Positions 11,195 through 26,938 of a DNA stretch of 64,000 nucleotides are shown here, in pieces (the stretch's first letter is position 1; every line of letters begins with the position of its first letter). The position numbers were made by a program, and so were the translations under genes. The notes under the pieces are model-generated. The model worked only from the letters and a program-made list of their open reading frames with translations. It ran no database searches and was not told the origin of the DNA. Origin of the DNA: Solirubrobacterales bacterium (GTDB taxonomy: Bacteria > Actinomycetota > Thermoleophilia > Solirubrobacterales > 70-9); contig JAICSS010000001.1 of the NCBI GenBank assembly GCA_025936755.1, positions 1 through 64,000 of the forward strand, in the 5' to 3' direction.

Positions 11195-12147
11195 GCCGGG
11201 GTCCCGATCGGAGTCGGCCTGCTGCTCTCGCCCTCGCCGCTCGGCGCTCCTTCGGCGCCGGCGAGGAGCTCGTAGAGGATCGCCATCCGCACCACCAGGC
11301 CGGCGGCGACCTGCTCGGTGATCAGCGACTGCGGCGAGTCGATCGCCTCGCCGGAGAGCTCGACGCCGCGGTTGACCGGACCGGGGTGCATCAGCAGCTG
11401 GCGCGGCTGGAGGCGGCGGCTGTCGATCTGGAAGCTGGCCGCGTACTCGCGCAGCGAGGGGACGAAGCTCTCGCTCATCCGCTCCTTCTGCATCCGCAGC
11501 GCGTAGACGACCTCGGCCTCCTCGATCCCCTCGAGGCCGTAGGCGACGTCGCAGCCGAGCTCCTCGATCCCGCGCGGGATCAGGGTCGGCGGGCCGCAGA
11601 CGGTGACCTCGGCCCCCATGCGGTTGAAGGCGATCAGGTTGGAGCGGGCGACGCGGCTGTGGAGGACGTCGCCGACGATCCAGATCCGGACTCCCTCCAG
11701 GGAACCGAGCTTGCGGCGCAGGGTGTAGACGTCGAGGAGGGCCTGGCTCGGATGCTCGTGCTTGCCGTCGCCGGCGTTGATTACCGAGGCGGCGGTCCAG
11801 CCGGCGACCATCTGGGCGGCGCCGGCGTAGGGGTGGCGGATCACGATCGCGGCCGGGTCGTAGGCGGAGAGGGTGGCGACCGTGTCCTTCAGCGACTCCC
11901 CCTTCTCGACCGAGGAGCCGGCGGCCTTGACCGAGACGACGTCGGCGGAGAGGCGCTTGGCGGCGAGGTCGAAGGAGCTGGAGGTGCGGGTGCTCGACTC
12001 GTAGAAGAGCGAGACGACGGTGCGGCCGCGCAGCGTCGGCACCTTCTTGATGTCGCGGCGACCGACCTCGGCGAAGCTCTCGGCGCGGTCGAGGATCCCC
12101 TCGATCTCCTCGCGCGAGAGCTGCTCGATCGAGAGCAGGTGCTTCAT
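11191..12147 (-). CDS. pyrB: Aspartate carbamoyltransferase catalytic subunit
   Basis: PyrB joins carbamoyl phosphate and aspartate, the first committed pyrimidine step. The 318 residues carry the carbamoyl-phosphate signature FYESSTRTSSSF (residues 48-59), HEHPSQALLDVYT and the [16 protein letters not shown] HPGPVNRGVE. No pyrI regulatory chain lies nearby, as is usual for actinobacteria. It overlaps pyrR and pyrC by 4 bases each. Confidence 0.97.
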   Translation of the reverse strand: MKHLLSIEQLSREEIEGILDRAESFAEVGRRDIKKVPTLRGRTVVSLFYESSTRTSSSFDLAAKRLSADVVSVKAAGSSVEKGESLKDTVATLSAYDPAAIVIRHPYAGAAQMVAGWTAASVINAGDGKHEHPSQALLDVYTLRRKLGSLEGVRIWIVGDVLHSRVARSNLIAFNRMGAEVTVCGPPTLIPRGIEELGCDVAYGLEGIEEAEVVYALRMQKERMSESFVPSLREYAASFQIDSRRLQPRQLLMHPGPVNRGVELSGEAIDSPQSLITEQVAAGLVVRMAILYELLAGAEGAPSGEGESSRPTPIGTPA

Positions 12148-12704
12148 CGGCCCACCTCCACGGGGTCGGGTTCGGAGATCGTGACGCCGTCTGTGCCGTC
12201 GACCTCCTCGAGGCGGACGTTGACCCGCTCCTCGCGCGCCGTCGGCAGGTTTTTGCCGACGTAGTCGGGGCGGATCGGCAGCTCGCGGTGGCCGCGGTCG
12301 CAGAGAACCGCCAACTGGACGCGCTGGGGGCGACCGTAGTCGAAGAGGGCCTCGATCGCGGCGCGGACGGTGCGGCCCGTGTAAAGGACGTCGTCGACGA
12401 GGACGACGGTGCGGCCGGAGAGGTCGAAGTCGATGTGGGAGGAGTGGACGACGGGCTGCGAGGCGGGCGACTTGGCGCCGACGTCGTCGCGGTAGAAGGA
12501 GATGTCGAGGTCGCCGATCGGCAGCTCGGCCCCGGTCAGCTCGCCGAGGAAGACGTGGAGGCGGCGGGCCAGGACGGCGCCGCGGGTGTGGATGCCGACG
12601 ACCGCCAAATGCTCCGAATCCGGGTTCTTCTCGGCGATCTCGTGGGCGATCCGCCGCAGCGTTCGCCTCAGATCGTCGTGCTCCAGCACGACCTTGTCGT
12701 TCAC
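12144..12704 (-). CDS. pyrR: PyrR, UMP-responsive RNA-binding regulator / uracil phosphoribosyltransferase
   Basis: PyrR binds the pyr leader RNA when UMP is high and also has weak uracil phosphoribosyltransferase activity. The 186 residues include the PRPP loop VVLVDDVLYTGRT (100-112) and conserved VVGIHTRGAVLARRL and PDYVGKNLPT segments. Translation starts at GTG 12704, behind GGAAGGAAG. A PyrR-binding-loop-like sequence overlaps that ribosome site, so this first gene probably controls its own operon at translation. Confidence 0.96.
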   Translation of the reverse strand: MNDKVVLEHDDLRRTLRRIAHEIAEKNPDSEHLAVVGIHTRGAVLARRLHVFLGELTGAELPIGDLDISFYRDDVGAKSPASQPVVHSSHIDFDLSGRTVVLVDDVLYTGRTVRAAIEALFDYGRPQRVQLAVLCDRGHRELPIRPDYVGKNLPTAREERVNVRLEEVDGTDGVTISEPDPVEVGR

Positions 12705-12757
12705 TTCGGTTGCTTCCTTCCTGGCCTCACGGGACCGGGTTAAAGGACGGCCTCACT
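12705..12757 (-). promoter_or_regulatory. pyr leader with PyrR-binding-loop-like element and ribosome site
   Basis: Minus-strand leader sequence includes CCCGGTCCCGTGAGGCC followed by AGGAAGGAAG. This resembles the PyrR-binding loop (a GUCC stem strand, a GAGAGG-like loop, a GGC return) found at actinobacterial pyrR genes. The purine-rich ribosome site is part of, or directly after, the loop. A weak -10-like TACAGT sits just upstream (12757-12752). No terminator follows within the leader, so translational repression fits better than attenuation. Confidence 0.5.
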
Positions 12758-12771
12758 GTAACAGCGAGGGA

Positions 12772-12839
12772 GGCGGGGACGGGTAGGCCCCTTCCTCGCA
12801 AATTGGGGAGGGCTCGTCAGGGGCCTACCCGTCCCCGCC
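12772..12839. repeat. Hairpin element A: 20-bp perfect arms, 28-nt loop
   Basis: Positions 12772-12791 and 12820-12839 are exact reverse complements, around a 28-nt loop. The right arm covers the last codons and stop of rnz. The loop matches the loop of the element at 25868-25929 at about 20 of 28 positions, while the arms differ. It separates rnz from pyrR and could act as an rnz transcript end, though it lacks a T-run. Confidence 0.75.
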
Positions 12840-13787
12840 CCGGTCCGCGGCTCCGTTCGGGATGAGATGGGGTTCGCCTCGCTCGGGGAAAGGGAGCTCG
12901 ATGAGGTCGAAGTCTTTGGGGGCGACGGTCGGCTCGAAGACCTCCTTCGCCTCCTCGATCACCTTGCCGACGTGGTAGCGGGAGGAGATGTGGACGAGGG
13001 CGAGCAGCTTGACGTGCGCCTCGGCGGCGATGCCGGCGGCCTGGGCGACGGTCGAGTGGCCGGTTTCGGCCGCGCGCCGAACCTCCTCCTCGGCGAAGGA
13101 GGCATCGTGGATCAGCAGGTCGGCGTCGGCCGCGGCGGAGACGGTGGCGGGGCTGGGGGCGGTGTCGCCGGTGATCACGATCGTGCGGCCTGGGCGGCTC
13201 GCCCCCATCACCTCATCGGGGGTGACAGTCCCTGTCTCTCCCTCCACGGTCTCCCCCCGCTGCAGGGCCGCATAGGCGGGCCCTTCCGGTACGCCCGCCG
13301 CAGCCGCCGCAGCGGGATCGAAGCGGCCGGGCCGCTCCGCCTCGACCAGCGCGTAGCCGTTGGCGCGGGTGGTGCGGTGGGAGGCTTCGAACGGCCGCAC
13401 CTCGTAGCCGTCGTGCTCGATCGCGTCGGCCGGCCCGACCTCGATCAGGTCCAGGCTGAACCCCAGCCGGCCGATCAGCGGCGAGAAGACCTGGAACAGC
13501 TCCGAGAGCCCCGGCGGCCCGTAGACCTTCAGCGGCGCCTGCCGGTCGGTCAGGTCATAGGTCTTCAACAGCCCCGGCAGCCCCAGGACGTGGTCGGCAT
13601 GGAAGTGCGTCAGGTAGATCTCGTCCGCCTGCACCAGCCCCAGCGACCGCTGCATCTGCCGCTGCGTCCCTTCCCCGCAGTCGAACAACAGCCGCTCCCC
13701 CCCACGCGCCACGAGCACGCTGGCCGTAGAACGCCGCGCCGAAGGCACCGAGCCCCCGGTCCCGAGAAAAGTCACCGCCAAATCCAT
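12825..13787 (-). CDS. rnz: Ribonuclease Z (tRNA 3' processing endonuclease)
   Basis: RNase Z trims the 3' trailers of tRNA precursors that lack encoded CCA, and is a zinc metallo-beta-lactamase. The 320 residues show the zinc motif THFHADHVLGLPG (60-72), VTFLGTGGSVPS at the N-terminus, the substrate region EASHRT, ITGDTAPS and the final zinc His in LVHISSRY. The tRNA-Arg gene divergent to it has no encoded CCA, consistent with a need for this enzyme. The C-terminal RGGDG tail is encoded by a hairpin arm. Confidence 0.93.
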   Translation of the reverse strand: MDLAVTFLGTGGSVPSARRSTASVLVARGGERLLFDCGEGTQRQMQRSLGLVQADEIYLTHFHADHVLGLPGLLKTYDLTDRQAPLKVYGPPGLSELFQVFSPLIGRLGFSLDLIEVGPADAIEHDGYEVRPFEASHRTTRANGYALVEAERPGRFDPAAAAAAGVPEGPAYAALQRGETVEGETGTVTPDEVMGASRPGRTIVITGDTAPSPATVSAAADADLLIHDASFAEEEVRRAAETGHSTVAQAAGIAAEAHVKLLALVHISSRYHVGKVIEEAKEVFEPTVAPKDFDLIELPFPERGEPHLIPNGAADRGGDG

Positions 13788-18636: not shown

Positions 18637-19869
18637 CTAGACGGCTACCTCCTGCGGGAACTCGGCCTCGAAGCTCTCGAGGGCGGGGTCGATCTCGTGC
18701 ATCTGGAACGTATCGCGGGTGGCGTCGAGCGTCTTCAGGCCCTCGCCGGTGATGTAGACGACGACGCGCTCGCCGGCGGCGATCTCGCCCCGTTCGGCCA
18801 GCTTGCGCAGGACGCCGACGGTGACGCCGCCGGCGGTCTCGGTGAAGATCCCGGTCGTCTCGGCCAGCAGCTTGATCCCCTCGCGAATCTCCTGATCGGT
18901 GACGGAGTCGACGCCGCCGCCGCTGCGGCGCGCCTGCTCGACGGCGTAGGGACCGTCGGCGGGGTCGCCGATCGCGAGGCTCTTGGCGATCGTCTCGGGT
19001 CGCTGCGGCTTGCAGACTTCCCAGCCTTCGGCGAACGCCGTCGCCACCGGGCTGCAGCCCTCCGCCTGGGCGCCGTTGAAGGCCGGCTGCTCGCCGCAGA
19101 CCAGACCGAGGTCGAGCCACTCCTGGAAGCCGCGGGCGAGCTTGGTGAAGAGCGAGCCGGAGGCGATCGGAGAGACGACCCGGTCCGGCAGCTGCCAGCC
19201 GAGCTGCTCGACCGTCTCGTAGGCGAGGGTCTTCGAGCCCTCGGCGTAGTAGGGCCGCAGGTTGACGTTGACGAAGGCCCAGGGGTGGATCTCCGCGAGC
19301 TGGGTGCAGAGACGGTTGACGTCGTCGTAGTTGCCGCGGACGCCGACCAGGTTGGTCCCGTAGACGCCGGTCGCGAGCAGCTTCTGCTCCTCGAGGTTGG
19401 CGGGGACGAAGACGTAGGAGTCGAGGCCGGCGGCGGCGGCGTGGGCGGCGACCGCATTGGCGAGGTTGCCGGTCGAGGCGCAGGCGACGGTGTCGAAGCC
19501 GAGCTCCTTCGCTTTGGCGACGGCGACCGCGACTACCCGGTCCTTGAAGGAGTGGGTGGGGTTGGCGGCGTCGTTCTTGATCCAGATCTCGGCGTCCACC
19601 CCGAGCCGCTCGGCCAGCCGCTCCGCCTTCAGCAGCGGCGTCAGACCCGGCTCCAGCGGATCGGTCGCCCTGCCCTTGAAGGGCAGGAAGTCGCGATAGC
19701 GCCAGATCCCCTGCGACCCGGCCTGGATTCGCCGCTTGACCTCCGTCGCGTCGAGGCCGCTGAAGTCGTAGGCGACCTCCAGCGGTCCGAAGCAGTTCTC
19801 GCAGACGTAGCGGGCGTCCAGCTCATACGCGGTCCCGCACTCCTTGCACTTCAGGCTCTCTACCGGCAT
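18637..19869 (-). CDS. Threonine-synthase-like PLP enzyme under SAM control, probable O-phosphohomoserine sulfur-transfer enzyme (MetM-like)
   Basis: By fold this is fold-type II threonine synthase, 410 residues. An N-terminal zinc ribbon (C8, C11, C23, C26) precedes the PLP lysine K109 in NPTHSFKDR and the phosphate-binding STGNLANA loop. Threonine synthases turn O-phosphohomoserine into threonine. Here the gene follows a SAM-I riboswitch and is fused in expression to a CysO-like sulfur carrier. Repression by SAM fits methionine synthesis, not threonine. I infer that it makes homocysteine from O-phosphohomoserine and carrier thiocarboxylate. A MetM/MetO route of this kind has been reported in Streptomyces, as far as I recall. 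Plain threonine synthase is the alternative. The in-frame upstream extension overlaps the riboswitch and is rejected. Confidence 0.85.
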   Translation of the reverse strand: MPVESLKCKECGTAYELDARYVCENCFGPLEVAYDFSGLDATEVKRRIQAGSQGIWRYRDFLPFKGRATDPLEPGLTPLLKAERLAERLGVDAEIWIKNDAANPTHSFKDRVVAVAVAKAKELGFDTVACASTGNLANAVAAHAAAAGLDSYVFVPANLEEQKLLATGVYGTNLVGVRGNYDDVNRLCTQLAEIHPWAFVNVNLRPYYAEGSKTLAYETVEQLGWQLPDRVVSPIASGSLFTKLARGFQEWLDLGLVCGEQPAFNGAQAEGCSPVATAFAEGWEVCKPQRPETIAKSLAIGDPADGPYAVEQARRSGGGVDSVTDQEIREGIKLLAETTGIFTETAGGVTVGVLRKLAERGEIAAGERVVVYITGEGLKTLDATRDTFQMHEIDPALESFEAEFPQEVAV

Positions 19870-19920: not shown

Positions 19921-19936
19921 CCGGATCGGACATCCC

Positions 19937-20056
19937 CCACATCTTCCAGGCCTCGAATCTTTCGACCTGCTGGAGTTGGCACCTGTCTCGGTCCTTGCGG
20001 TCCGAGTTGGTTGCCGGGGCTTCAATGGGCCAGTCCCTCCACCCCTCTAGATGTGG
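19937..20056 (-). ncRNA. SAM-I (S-box) riboswitch aptamer
   Basis: Minus-strand RNA opens and closes with P1 strands CCACAUCU and AGAUGUGG. Between them lie the class signatures in order: AGAGGGGUGGAGGGACUGG, CCCAUUGAAGCCCCGGCAACC, a G/C hairpin, then GGUGCCAACUCCAGCAG and a final small hairpin before GGAAGAUGUGG. This is the canonical S-box layout including the kink-turn GA pairs. High SAM should stabilise P1, release the terminator and switch off the downstream enzyme and sulfur carrier. Confidence 0.96.
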
Positions 20057-20072
20057 CGCTTATGTAGAGGCC

Positions 20073-24880: not shown

Positions 24881-25861
24881 GTGTCCGCGCAGCTTCGCTC
24901 CCTCCGCCGCCGCAAACCCGCGAAGAAGCGGATGCTGCTGATCGTCAACCCGTATGCGACCACGGTCTCCGACCGGCTGAAAAACCTGGTGGTCTACGCG
25001 CTGCAGGGGCGGTTCGACGTCGAAGCCGTCACCACGCAGGCGCAGAACCATGCGACCGAGATCGGGCGGGAGGCCAAGGACGGGGGCTATGACGTGGTCG
25101 TCGCCTTCGGCGGCGACGGGACGCTGAACGAGGTCGCCAACGGGCTTGCGGGGTCCGACCTGCCGGTGGCGATCCTGCCCGGCGGCTCGACCAACGTGGT
25201 CTGCCGAACGCTGGGGATGCCGAACGACGTCGTCGACGCGACCGAGCACCTGCTGACCCTCGCTGACGACTGGCAGCCGCGAAAGATCGACCTCGGGACG
25301 GTCGACGACCGCTACTTCGTCTTCTCCTGCGGGGTCGGCATCGACGCCAGCGTCGTCAAGCGGGTCGACCGCAACCCCACCCTGAAGGGGAACGCCGGGC
25401 CCTACTACTACAGCTGGGCCGGCGTCTCCAGCTTCTACCGCAAGTACCTCGTCAACCCGGTGCGGGTGCGGACGACGGTCGACGGCGCCGAGCCGGTCGA
25501 GGGGATTACCACGATCGTCCAGAACTCCGATCCCTTCACCTACTTCACCACCCACCCGATCCGGGTCTGCGAGGGAATCGCGATCGACGACGGCACGCTT
25601 TCGCTCGCGGTCCTGAGACGGGCGGCGCAGCGCGACATGCCGACCCTGGTCACCCGCCTCTTCAGCGAGACCAAGCCCGCCGCCCGCCACAAGCAGGTGG
25701 CCCATTTCGACGACGTCGCCCACGCGGTGGTCGAGACCGCCTCGCTGGCCAAGGACGGCGGCCCCCGCCCTTTCCCCCTCCAGGTCGACGGCGACTACAT
25801 CGGCGAGCGGGAGCGGATCGAGCTGCGGGCTGTGCCCGGCGCTTTGACGATCGTCGCCTAG
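24881..25861 (+). CDS. Diacylglycerol-kinase-family lipid kinase
   Basis: 326 residues, GTG start. The catalytic-domain signature GGDGTLNEVANGLAG lies near residue 78, and LPGGSTNVVCRTLG follows, as in DgkB/YegS lipid kinases that phosphorylate diacylglycerol or related lipids. MLLIVNPYATTVS is the usual first strand. The C-terminal domain ends IGERERIELRAVPGAL. A positively charged first 18 residues may touch the membrane. It is convergent with the epimerase gene across a long hairpin. Confidence 0.9.
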   Translation: MSAQLRSLRRRKPAKKRMLLIVNPYATTVSDRLKNLVVYALQGRFDVEAVTTQAQNHATEIGREAKDGGYDVVVAFGGDGTLNEVANGLAGSDLPVAILPGGSTNVVCRTLGMPNDVVDATEHLLTLADDWQPRKIDLGTVDDRYFVFSCGVGIDASVVKRVDRNPTLKGNAGPYYYSWAGVSSFYRKYLVNPVRVRTTVDGAEPVEGITTIVQNSDPFTYFTTHPIRVCEGIAIDDGTLSLAVLRRAAQRDMPTLVTRLFSETKPAARHKQVAHFDDVAHAVVETASLAKDGGPRPFPLQVDGDYIGERERIELRAVPGALTIVA

Positions 25862-25867
25862 TTAGAG

Positions 25868-25929
25868 AGGGAAAAGGGGGACCCTCCGTCGCAGATTTGG
25901 GGAGGCTCCTCCGGGTCCCCCTTTTCCCT
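25868..25929. repeat. Hairpin element B: 17-bp perfect arms, 28-nt loop
   Basis: Positions 25868-25884 and 25913-25929 are exact reverse complements around a 28-nt loop. The loop length equals that of the element at 12772-12839, and about 20 of 28 loop bases agree (shared TCGCA and GGGGAGG-like core), although the arms are unrelated in sequence. It lies between two convergent genes, and its right arm includes the first base of the epimerase stop region. It may end both transcripts. Confidence 0.75.
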
Positions 25930-26938
25930 ACTCCAGCAGGCCTTTGCCTTGCGCTCCGGCCACCGTTTCCTGCAGCGTCTCACGAGCTGAGTGCTGAGGT
26001 TTCCAGTCGAGGTCGCGGCGGGCCTTGGCCGCGTCCATCAGGACCGGGGTGTCGGCGGCGATCGCCCACTCGAGCTTCGCCGAGGCGAAGCTGAGGCGGC
26101 GGGCGGCGGCGGTGCCGACGCTGACAGCGGGGCGTGGGACGGGGACCCAGCGCCAGCCGAGGGCGCGGGCGAGGTCGCGGACTTGGATCTCCCCCTCGCC
26201 GGCGAGGTTGTAGACGCCGGGCGGGCCGTCGCCGCAGATCGCCGCGGCCATCGCCCGGGCGACGTCGTCGTGGTGGACGAGCTGGAAGGGGACGCCGGGG
26301 TCGGGCAGGACCGGCGCCACCAGCGGCAGCTTTTCGAGGCCCTTGCGCAGCAGCGGCACCGGGTCGCCGGCCCGGACCGCCTCGACGGTCTGCTCGACCA
26401 GCATCGTCGCCCGCGGCCCGGCGACGATGCAGGGGCGGAAGACGTAGGGCTCGACCTCGCTGCCCTCGAACAGCTCCTCGAGCAGGTCCTCCAGCTCCGC
26501 CTTCTGCGCCGAGTAGTAGAAGCTCTCCGAGCCGCGGGCGGGGACGTCCTCGCCGAGCGGCTGCGGGTTCTCGGGGTGAAAGCCGTAGGCGGCGACCGAG
26601 GAGGCGTAGACAAGCCGTTTGACGCCGGCCCGGAGCGCCGCTTCGAAGACGTTGCGGGTTCCCTGCAGGTTGACCTTTCGCGTCTCCTCGCGGCTGCCGA
26701 AGATCGCGAAGGCGAGGTGGACGGCGACGTCCACCCCATCGAACAACGCAGCGAGCGCCCCCCGGTCGAGGATGTCGCCGCGCCGGTAGGCGACCTTCTC
26801 CCAGCCCTCCTCGGAGGGATCGAAGGGCCGCCGAGCCATCCCCAGCACCTCCCCCACCTCGGGGCGGCGCTCCAGCTCCGCCATCAGCGGCTTCCCGATC
26901 TCCCCCGTGGGCCCGGTCACCGCGACGGCTAATGACAT
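25928..26938 (-). CDS. NAD-dependent epimerase/dehydratase family protein
   Basis: Extended SDR of 336 residues. The nucleotide-binding motif TGPTGEIGKPLM replaces the more usual TGxxGxxG with compatible spacing. HLAFAIFGS and ASSVAAYG follow, with catalytic YYSAQK. The C-terminal half has the substrate-binding Ala-Gly-Pro-Arg-Ala segment and a VHHDDVARAM motif common in actinobacterial sugar or steroid-like epimerases. The substrate is unknown. It stands downstream of the RelA gene on the same strand. Confidence 0.85.
   Translation of the reverse strand: MSLAVAVTGPTGEIGKPLMAELERRPEVGEVLGMARRPFDPSEEGWEKVAYRRGDILDRGALAALFDGVDVAVHLAFAIFGSREETRKVNLQGTRNVFEAALRAGVKRLVYASSVAAYGFHPENPQPLGEDVPARGSESFYYSAQKAELEDLLEELFEGSEVEPYVFRPCIVAGPRATMLVEQTVEAVRAGDPVPLLRKGLEKLPLVAPVLPDPGVPFQLVHHDDVARAMAAAICGDGPPGVYNLAGEGEIQVRDLARALGWRWVPVPRPAVSVGTAAARRLSFASAKLEWAIAADTPVLMDAAKARRDLDWKPQHSARETLQETVAGAQGKGLLE

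What the first reader, a model, noticed from the sequence alone, without database searches (positions are those of the whole stretch)
12772..12839. Family of hairpins with conserved 28-nt loops but unrelated arms (members at 12772-12839 and 25868-25929)
Both have perfect long arms (20 and 17 bp), the same loop length, and about 20 of 28 identical loop bases. Their arms share no sequence yet remain fully self-complementary. Each sits at a gene 3' end and its arm overlaps the stop codon. Selection on structure plus loop, rather than recent copying, is suggested. It could be a terminator type, an RNA-stability element or a protein site.
Basis: partly seen in the sequence, partly recalled or inferred. 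Interest (0 to 1): 0.65.

Follow-up and report, generated by a model that had tools for sequence, protein, structure and literature searches.

The report
Conserved-loop palindromic repeat with drifting arms
The two hairpins are members of a DNA repeat family with dozens of copies in one small group of soil actinobacteria; it sits after genes and even inside them in frame, and keeps its loop sequence and its perfect folding while its arm letters drift, which makes it a close analogue of the protein-coding palindromes of Rickettsia rather than a set of transcription terminators.

Summary
Both hairpins belong to a ~68-nt palindromic repeat family in one Solirubrobacterales clade. A covariance model finds 5-67 copies per genome in 13 genomes of two genera and almost none in the rest of 232 genomes of the order. 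Each copy has arms of about 17-27 bp around a 26-29 nt apical domain, usually containing AACAGCGGGGAGG. Arms covary at 22 of 23 pairs. G.T mismatches are not in excess over A.C (23 against 19), so the palindrome looks maintained as DNA, not as RNA.

Of 77 independent sites, about 15 lie in frame inside genes (CysRS, Lhr, PrmA, CofE, MMPL). The rest lie mostly just after stop codons. No T-tract follows. Both window hairpins are absent at orthologous sites in some relatives. Where copies are orthologous, the arms drift in compensation, the loop can invert or change subtype, and the closing bases are clade-specific.

Best reading: a lineage-specific non-autonomous palindromic element, like Rickettsia palindromic elements, whose arms are probably kept perfect by replication template switching. 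The arms are not entirely unrelated (GGGG/CCC inner core). The mobilising factor is unknown; no Y1/RAYT transposase was found in the genus. Terminator and RNA-element readings are not supported as the general explanation.

The parts
12772..12839 (+). Family member 1 (strand = the one that reads GGGGAGG in the loop). Arms 12772-12791 and 12820-12839 (20 bp; 21 bp if the T-A pair 12792/12819 is counted), apical domain 12792-12819 TTCCTCGCAAATTGGGGAGGGCTCGTCA.
   Evidence: covariance model R1 hit 12772-12839, E 9.6e-10, 62 bits; it was among the sequences that built the model
25868..25929 (+). Family member 2. Arms 25868-25884 and 25913-25929 (17 bp), apical domain 25885-25912 TCCGTCGCAGATTTGGGGAGGCTCCTCC.
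   Evidence: R1 hit 25865-25932, E 3.3e-9; it was among the sequences that built the model
12825..13718 (-). Metallo-beta-lactamase-fold gene (RNase Z-like). Its last codons and stop TAG (12825-12827) lie in the right arm of member 1.
   Evidence: the name RNase Z is from sequence knowledge, Pfam gives Lactamase_B_2
12144..12704 (-). Phosphoribosyltransferase gene, PyrR-like, first gene of the pyr operon downstream of member 1.
24881..25861 (+). Diacylglycerol-kinase-like gene ending 6 nt before member 2.
25928..26920 (-). NAD-dependent epimerase-like gene, convergent; its stop overlaps the last 2 nt of member 2.

Best explanation
It is a short (~60-80 bp) non-autonomous palindromic DNA repeat that spread through one clade of Solirubrobacterales and inserts where it does little harm: just after stop codons and, in frame, in indel-tolerant parts of proteins. 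SHOWN: family membership, lineage restriction, insertion-type presence/absence, in-frame sites, compensated arm drift, loop inversion, clade-wide change of the loop-closing bases. INFERRED: (1) spread depends on an unknown trans-acting activity that recognises the DNA hairpin by its apical domain, which is why that part is conserved and changes together across loci within a clade; (2) after insertion, the arms stay perfectly complementary mainly because DNA polymerase template switching between inverted repeats copies one arm onto the other (homogenisation) and sometimes flips the spacer, so arm letters drift freely while complementarity is renewed. Selection on the hairpin at DNA level may add to this. 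The 3'-end position then reflects tolerance, not a terminator function, though individual copies may have been co-opted.
For: Family: 17 copies of the type-A loop in the own genome with none for the reversed-pattern control. R1 finds 28 hits in G000, 67 in G003, 48 in G007, 36 in G001 and 34 in G011. 14 of 232 genomes of the order match: 11 of the window's own genus, 2 of genus g9 and one weak single hit elsewhere. Structure: 93.1% of cells paired, 22 of 23 pairs with double changes, covariation 0.816 against 0.219 shuffled. At orthologous sites, 67 fully compensated double changes against 28 one-sided ones. DNA rather than RNA: G.T 23 against A.C 19 among 2083 arm pairs. Insertion: clean empty site for G000:C22:7436 in G002, with G001 and G004 also empty; window 25868 absent, with 7 nt or less between convergent stops, in G004 and G001; window 12772 absent in G002, G004 and G005. 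In-frame copies: CysRS insert in all sampled carriers but not in G005 or other genera; F420 ligase match in two stretches, the first ending at the insert, and an Lhr DEAD-domain match that spans it. All three sense frames and antisense frames are used. Loop inversion with the same inner arms: prmA in G007 against G003; cysS inverted in G004. Subtype swap at the same prmA site in G011. Clade-specific closing bases: G-type in G000/G002, CTC in G010/G004/G026/G031 and in 3 of 5 copies of G001, TTC in all tabulated copies of G003/G006/G007/G008/G009/G011. Published precedent that template switching homogenises inverted-repeat arms and inverts spacers: PMC8604942 and PMC8794818.
Against: No transposase or other mobilising factor was found; Y1_Tnp/RAYT is absent from all 12 genomes of the genus. 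Target-site duplications could not be shown. Template switching is inferred from patterns, not observed. Clade-wide change of loop bases could equally be selection by a host factor. Tandem sites are biased in orientation (25.5 against 11.5), which a purely neutral repeat would not need. The one-to-one G.T/A.C ratio rests on 42 mismatches. Gene calls came from a home-made codon-usage caller.
Confidence: 0.68

Rival explanations
1. A class of transcription terminators or mRNA 3'-end stabilisers whose stem is free in sequence and whose loop is read by a protein or by the ribosome (the loop carries a Shine-Dalgarno-like GGGGAGG).
For: Intergenic copies lie a median 7 nt after the stop codon of the gene on the same strand, 36 of 44 within 30 nt; convergent sites 18.5, divergent only 3; tandem sites favour the GGGGAGG strand as RNA 25.5 to 11.5. 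Stems are very stable.
Against: About 15 of 77 independent sites are inside genes, in both orientations. T content after the stem equals background (1.29 against 1.25 per 8 nt), and the terminator scan does not pick either window hairpin. No wobble preference. REP repeats show the same positional preference without being terminators (PMC3733652).
Confidence: 0.14
2. A selected chromosomal DNA site: a host protein binds the extruded or single-stranded hairpin by its apical domain (replication, repair, chromosome organisation), and all sites coevolve with that protein.
For: Apical domain nearly invariant across loci, closing bases change together within each clade at independent orthologous sites (cysS, prmA, lhr and the L049/L122/L140/L135 site); structure maintained at DNA level at old sites.
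Against: Copy number varies from 5 to 67 between species of one genus and many sites are not shared; the genus member G005 has none; young insertions exist. No such protein identified.
Confidence: 0.13
3. Classical REP/REPIN elements mobilised by a RAYT (Y1 HUH) transposase.
For: Small palindromes after genes, some inside genes, some providing TAG stop codons, some closely spaced in inverted pairs.
Against: No Y1_Tnp domain in any of 12 genus genomes, while the control search rings in 5 of 14 known genomes. No enrichment of GTAG or CGTC at the feet: 8 and 5, 2 and 11 of 109, against background of 6% and 15%. Arms are not a shared sequence.
Confidence: 0.04

Closest known systems
Rickettsia palindromic elements (RPEs; Ogata and Claverie), described in PMC10969869
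   Same: Palindromic hairpin repeats dispersed in one bacterial lineage, found both between genes and, in frame, inside unrelated protein genes; mobilising machinery not identified here.
   Different: RPEs are ~150 bp and AT-rich hosts carry them; here ~68 bp in a GC-rich actinobacterium. Sequence families of RPEs share their stems (from memory); here mainly the apical domain and a short inner core are shared and the outer arms drift. No sequence relation was tested or is expected.
REP elements / REPINs with RAYT transposases (PMC3733652)
   Same: Size, preference for tandem and convergent 3' ends, stop codons supplied by the repeat, some copies inside ORFs, some inverted pairs.
   Different: No GTAG/CGTC tag, no RAYT in the genus, loop rather than stem is the conserved part.
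Bacterial MITEs, e.g. SPRITE (terminator-like element of pneumococcus) as listed in PMC10969869
   Same: Short, non-coding, hairpin-forming, intergenic and sometimes fused in frame.
   Different: No parent IS, no terminal inverted repeat of fixed sequence, no target duplication shown.
Quasipalindrome template switching (PMC8604942, PMC8794818)
   Same: Arm homogenisation, compensatory multi-base change and spacer inversion are exactly the patterns at orthologous sites here.
   Different: Those are mutation mechanisms at single sites; here they act on a dispersed repeat family with a shared spacer.
Intrinsic (Rho-independent) terminators
   Same: Stable GC stem after stop codons.
   Different: No T-tract, 26-29 nt conserved apical domain, copies inside genes.

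Membership tests
Rickettsia palindromic element-like repeats (by behaviour) | Dispersed palindrome in many unrelated loci of one lineage | tested here: met
Rickettsia palindromic element-like repeats (by behaviour) | In-frame insertion inside protein-coding genes | tested here: met
Rickettsia palindromic element-like repeats (by behaviour) | Homology to one of the known RPE families | not tested
   No RPE sequence was fetched; different phylum, size and base composition make homology unlikely, so membership in the RPE families themselves is not claimed.
REP / REPIN-RAYT | GTAG or CGTC tetranucleotide at the foot of the palindrome | tested here: not met
REP / REPIN-RAYT | RAYT (Y1 HUH, PF01797) in the genome | tested here: not met
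   0 of 12 genomes of the genus; control positive in 5 of 14 reference genomes
Intrinsic terminator | Run of T/U directly after a short-loop GC stem | tested here: not met
Intrinsic terminator | RNA 3' ends at the stem | not testable with these tools
   no transcriptome data
Structured RNA of Rfam | Match above the gathering score of a family | tested here: not met
   only sub-threshold matches of generic long hairpins to microRNA models
Functional RNA hairpin | G.U tolerated more than A.C on the RNA strand | tested here: not met
   23 against 19
MITE | Target-site duplication | tested here: inconclusive
   one clean empty site (G002 ttagg/cccagccgg) shows no duplication; too few sites
Template-switch-maintained inverted repeat | Compensated arm changes and spacer inversion at orthologous sites | tested here: met

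The most novel reading that the evidence does not exclude
The apical domain is the true mobile or recognised unit: a lineage-specific enzyme binds and processes the DNA hairpin by its ~28-nt head, seeds it into new sites and replaces or converts the heads of old sites, so that heads evolve in concert across the genome while each locus keeps its own arms. That would be a class of repeat defined by a shared loop and private, self-renewing stems.
Probability: 0.25. Interest if true: 0.82.

Novelty: new variant of a known kind. Interest (0 to 1): 0.6.

Why it matters
Protein-coding palindromes are best known from Rickettsia. A second large family in a distant, GC-rich phylum, with tens of copies per genome and orthologous copies across a genus, gives a comparative data set. 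It lets one ask how perfect hairpins survive while their letters change: compensatory selection or replication template switching. It also asks how loops at dozens of loci change together. It warns that strong covariation in bacterial hairpins is not by itself evidence for a functional RNA.

Tried and rejected
Terminator class: rejected as the general explanation (in-gene copies, no T-tract). PyrR RNA site, because member 1 lies upstream of a pyrR-like gene and GGGAGGCT resembles the PyrR motif as remembered: rejected, the loop motif is on the strand opposite to pyr transcription and member 2 is unrelated to pyr; a weak Rfam PyrR match lies beside the hairpin, not in it. Skipping-rope or other Rfam RNA: no match in Rfam; no paper in the held library. 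REP/RAYT. Inverted duplication of target DNA as the source of both arms: not supported at 25868, where only 7 nt or less separates the stops in empty relatives; it remains possible for the outermost pairs. Shine-Dalgarno decoy: only a resemblance, not tested. G-quadruplex: only 13 of 109 copies have four G-runs on the loop strand. Viral spread: the two viral contig matches are not hairpins. A fold of CysRS with the insert was too poor to use (mean pLDDT 39).

Full report
What was checked. In 60 Markov simulations of the window, perfect stems of 16 bp or more appear 0.017 times on average; the window has exactly two. Their 28-nt loops agree at 20 of 28 positions.

A family. A scan of 460 kb of the own genome for perfect stems showed more hairpins with long arms and a related loop, e.g. 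GCGGACAACAGCGGGGAGGGTCCGG. A pattern search of the whole 2.4-Mb genome gave 17 places against none for the reversed-pattern control, and nearly all are hairpins with 21-30 bp arms (L064 is a marginal case). Related genomes carry the same core with other closing bases. A gap-free 68-column alignment of 36 members gives 93.1% paired cells, 22 of 23 pairs with changes on both sides and a covariation score of 0.816 against 0.219 after shuffling; sliding the partners by one to three columns destroys it. This alignment was anchored on the core, and the structure was written by hand from it.

Distribution. A covariance model from that alignment (R1) finds 28 hits in the own genome, 67, 48, 36, 34, 23 and 20 in G003, G007, G001, G011, G009 and G006, and fewer in G002, G004, G008, G010, G026 and G031. 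Of 232 genomes of the order only 14 match: 11 of the own genus, 2 of genus g9 and one weak single hit. These large searches cap the number of scored candidates, so counts are lower bounds. Named public records with the loop are mostly Solirubrobacterales and other Actinomycetota MAGs (e.g. Solirubrobacterales bacterium 70-9), while matches elsewhere are scattered single records. A cysS tree places the non-carrier G005 outside the carriers, with weak support, which suggests one invasion.

Anatomy. Outer arm (variable, ~9 bp), inner arm with a G-rich core GGGG and a CCC step, left apical segment of 7-8 nt, 13-nt core (AACAGCGGGGAGG in most; ARATTTGGGGAGG-like in the window), right apical segment of 7 nt. 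The apical segments come in a paired form (GGCGGAAC/TTCCGGC) and an open form (TCTCTCAC/TTCGTTC). The window members are of the CTC type with an altered core; a third copy of this type lies at G000:C15:40044.

Position. A home-made codon-usage gene caller was used. Counting orthologous copies once, 77 sites divide into about 15.5 inside genes (9 sense, 6.5 antisense), 25.5 and 11.5 tandem (GGGGAGG strand same as or opposite to the genes), 18.5 convergent, 3 divergent and 3 at edges. For copies after a same-strand gene the median distance from its stop is 7 nt. The in-gene copies are real insertions: in CysRS the insert is shared by the carriers and absent from G005 and other genera. The position aligns with a short variable stretch of solved CysRS. 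In an F420 ligase the first Pfam stretch ends at the insert, an Lhr DEAD-domain match spans the insert, and MMPL matches in two stretches. Different reading frames and both orientations are used, so the encoded peptide is not what is conserved.

Gain. At the rnz-like locus of member 1 the relatives G002, G004 and G005 have no hairpin, while G003 and G009 have a family hairpin at about the same place with other arms (GCGGGTCAGATGATGTCC) and other loops. At the locus of member 2, G004 and G001 have at most 7 nt between the convergent stops. The clearest case is G000:C22:7436: G002 reads ttagg/cccagccgg where G000 has the 67-nt hairpin, with flanks 87% and 83% identical, and G001 and G004 are empty too.

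Drift, inversion, concert. At orthologous sites 67 arm pairs changed on both sides and still pair, against 28 one-sided changes. Arm mismatches are as often A.C as G.T (19 against 23 of 2083), which RNA-level selection would not give. At prmA, G007 and G003 share the inner arm TCTCGGGGGAGACTCG but the loop is inverted; at the same site G011 has the open loop subtype; in cysS the loop of G004 is inverted. The bases closing the core are clade-specific: G-GTC/GCC in G000 and G002, CTC in G010, G004, G026, G031 and in three of five copies of G001, TTC in all tabulated copies of G003, G006, G007, G008, G009 and G011. Published work shows that template switching homogenises inverted-repeat arms and inverts spacers (PMC8604942, PMC8794818). 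That explains arms and inversions but not the concerted change of the head, for which gene conversion, replacement by new copies or a coevolving factor are all open.

What it is not. No T-tract and copies in genes argue against terminators as the general function. No Rfam family matches above threshold. REP membership fails on the RAYT gene and on the terminal tag, though the positional habits of REPs are the same (PMC3733652). In behaviour it is closest to Rickettsia palindromic elements as summarised in PMC10969869.

Verdict. A real, unusual, lineage-specific palindromic repeat family; new variant of a known kind. The mobilising factor, the inserted unit and any function of individual copies remain to be shown.

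Noticed in passing
L148:131, L302:1959, L262:3319, L352:5237, L320:6656, L237:2803 (G006/G007/G009/G011 clade): A second set of long perfect palindromes with a shared loop (ACAGCCTGCC, reverse GGCAGGCTGT) and differing arms; the same shared-loop habit with an unrelated loop.
   Followed up: partly
G000:C6:1684, C8:1479, C22:16824 (L095-L097): A small third set in the own genome with loop CCTGCTTAGTGAGGG; the two copies whose stems were seen have unrelated arms.
   Followed up: partly
L114, L118, L239, L244, L104: Closely spaced pairs of family hairpins in inverted orientation, 70 to 490 nt apart, reminiscent of REPINs.
   Followed up: no
G001 contigs C21, C109, C235, C163, C213: Several contigs end in or within a few hundred bases of a family hairpin, so the repeats may break assemblies and copy numbers may be underestimated.
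   Followed up: no
window 12690-12771 (-): A conserved leader (TGCTACATT..GTCCTTTAACCCGGTCCCGAGAGGCCAGGAAGG in relatives) precedes the pyrR-like gene; weak sub-threshold PyrR match (24.5 of 54 bits).
   Followed up: partly
window 19936-20057 (-): SAM riboswitch upstream of a PLP-dependent (threonine synthase-like) gene 18637-19869.
   Followed up: no
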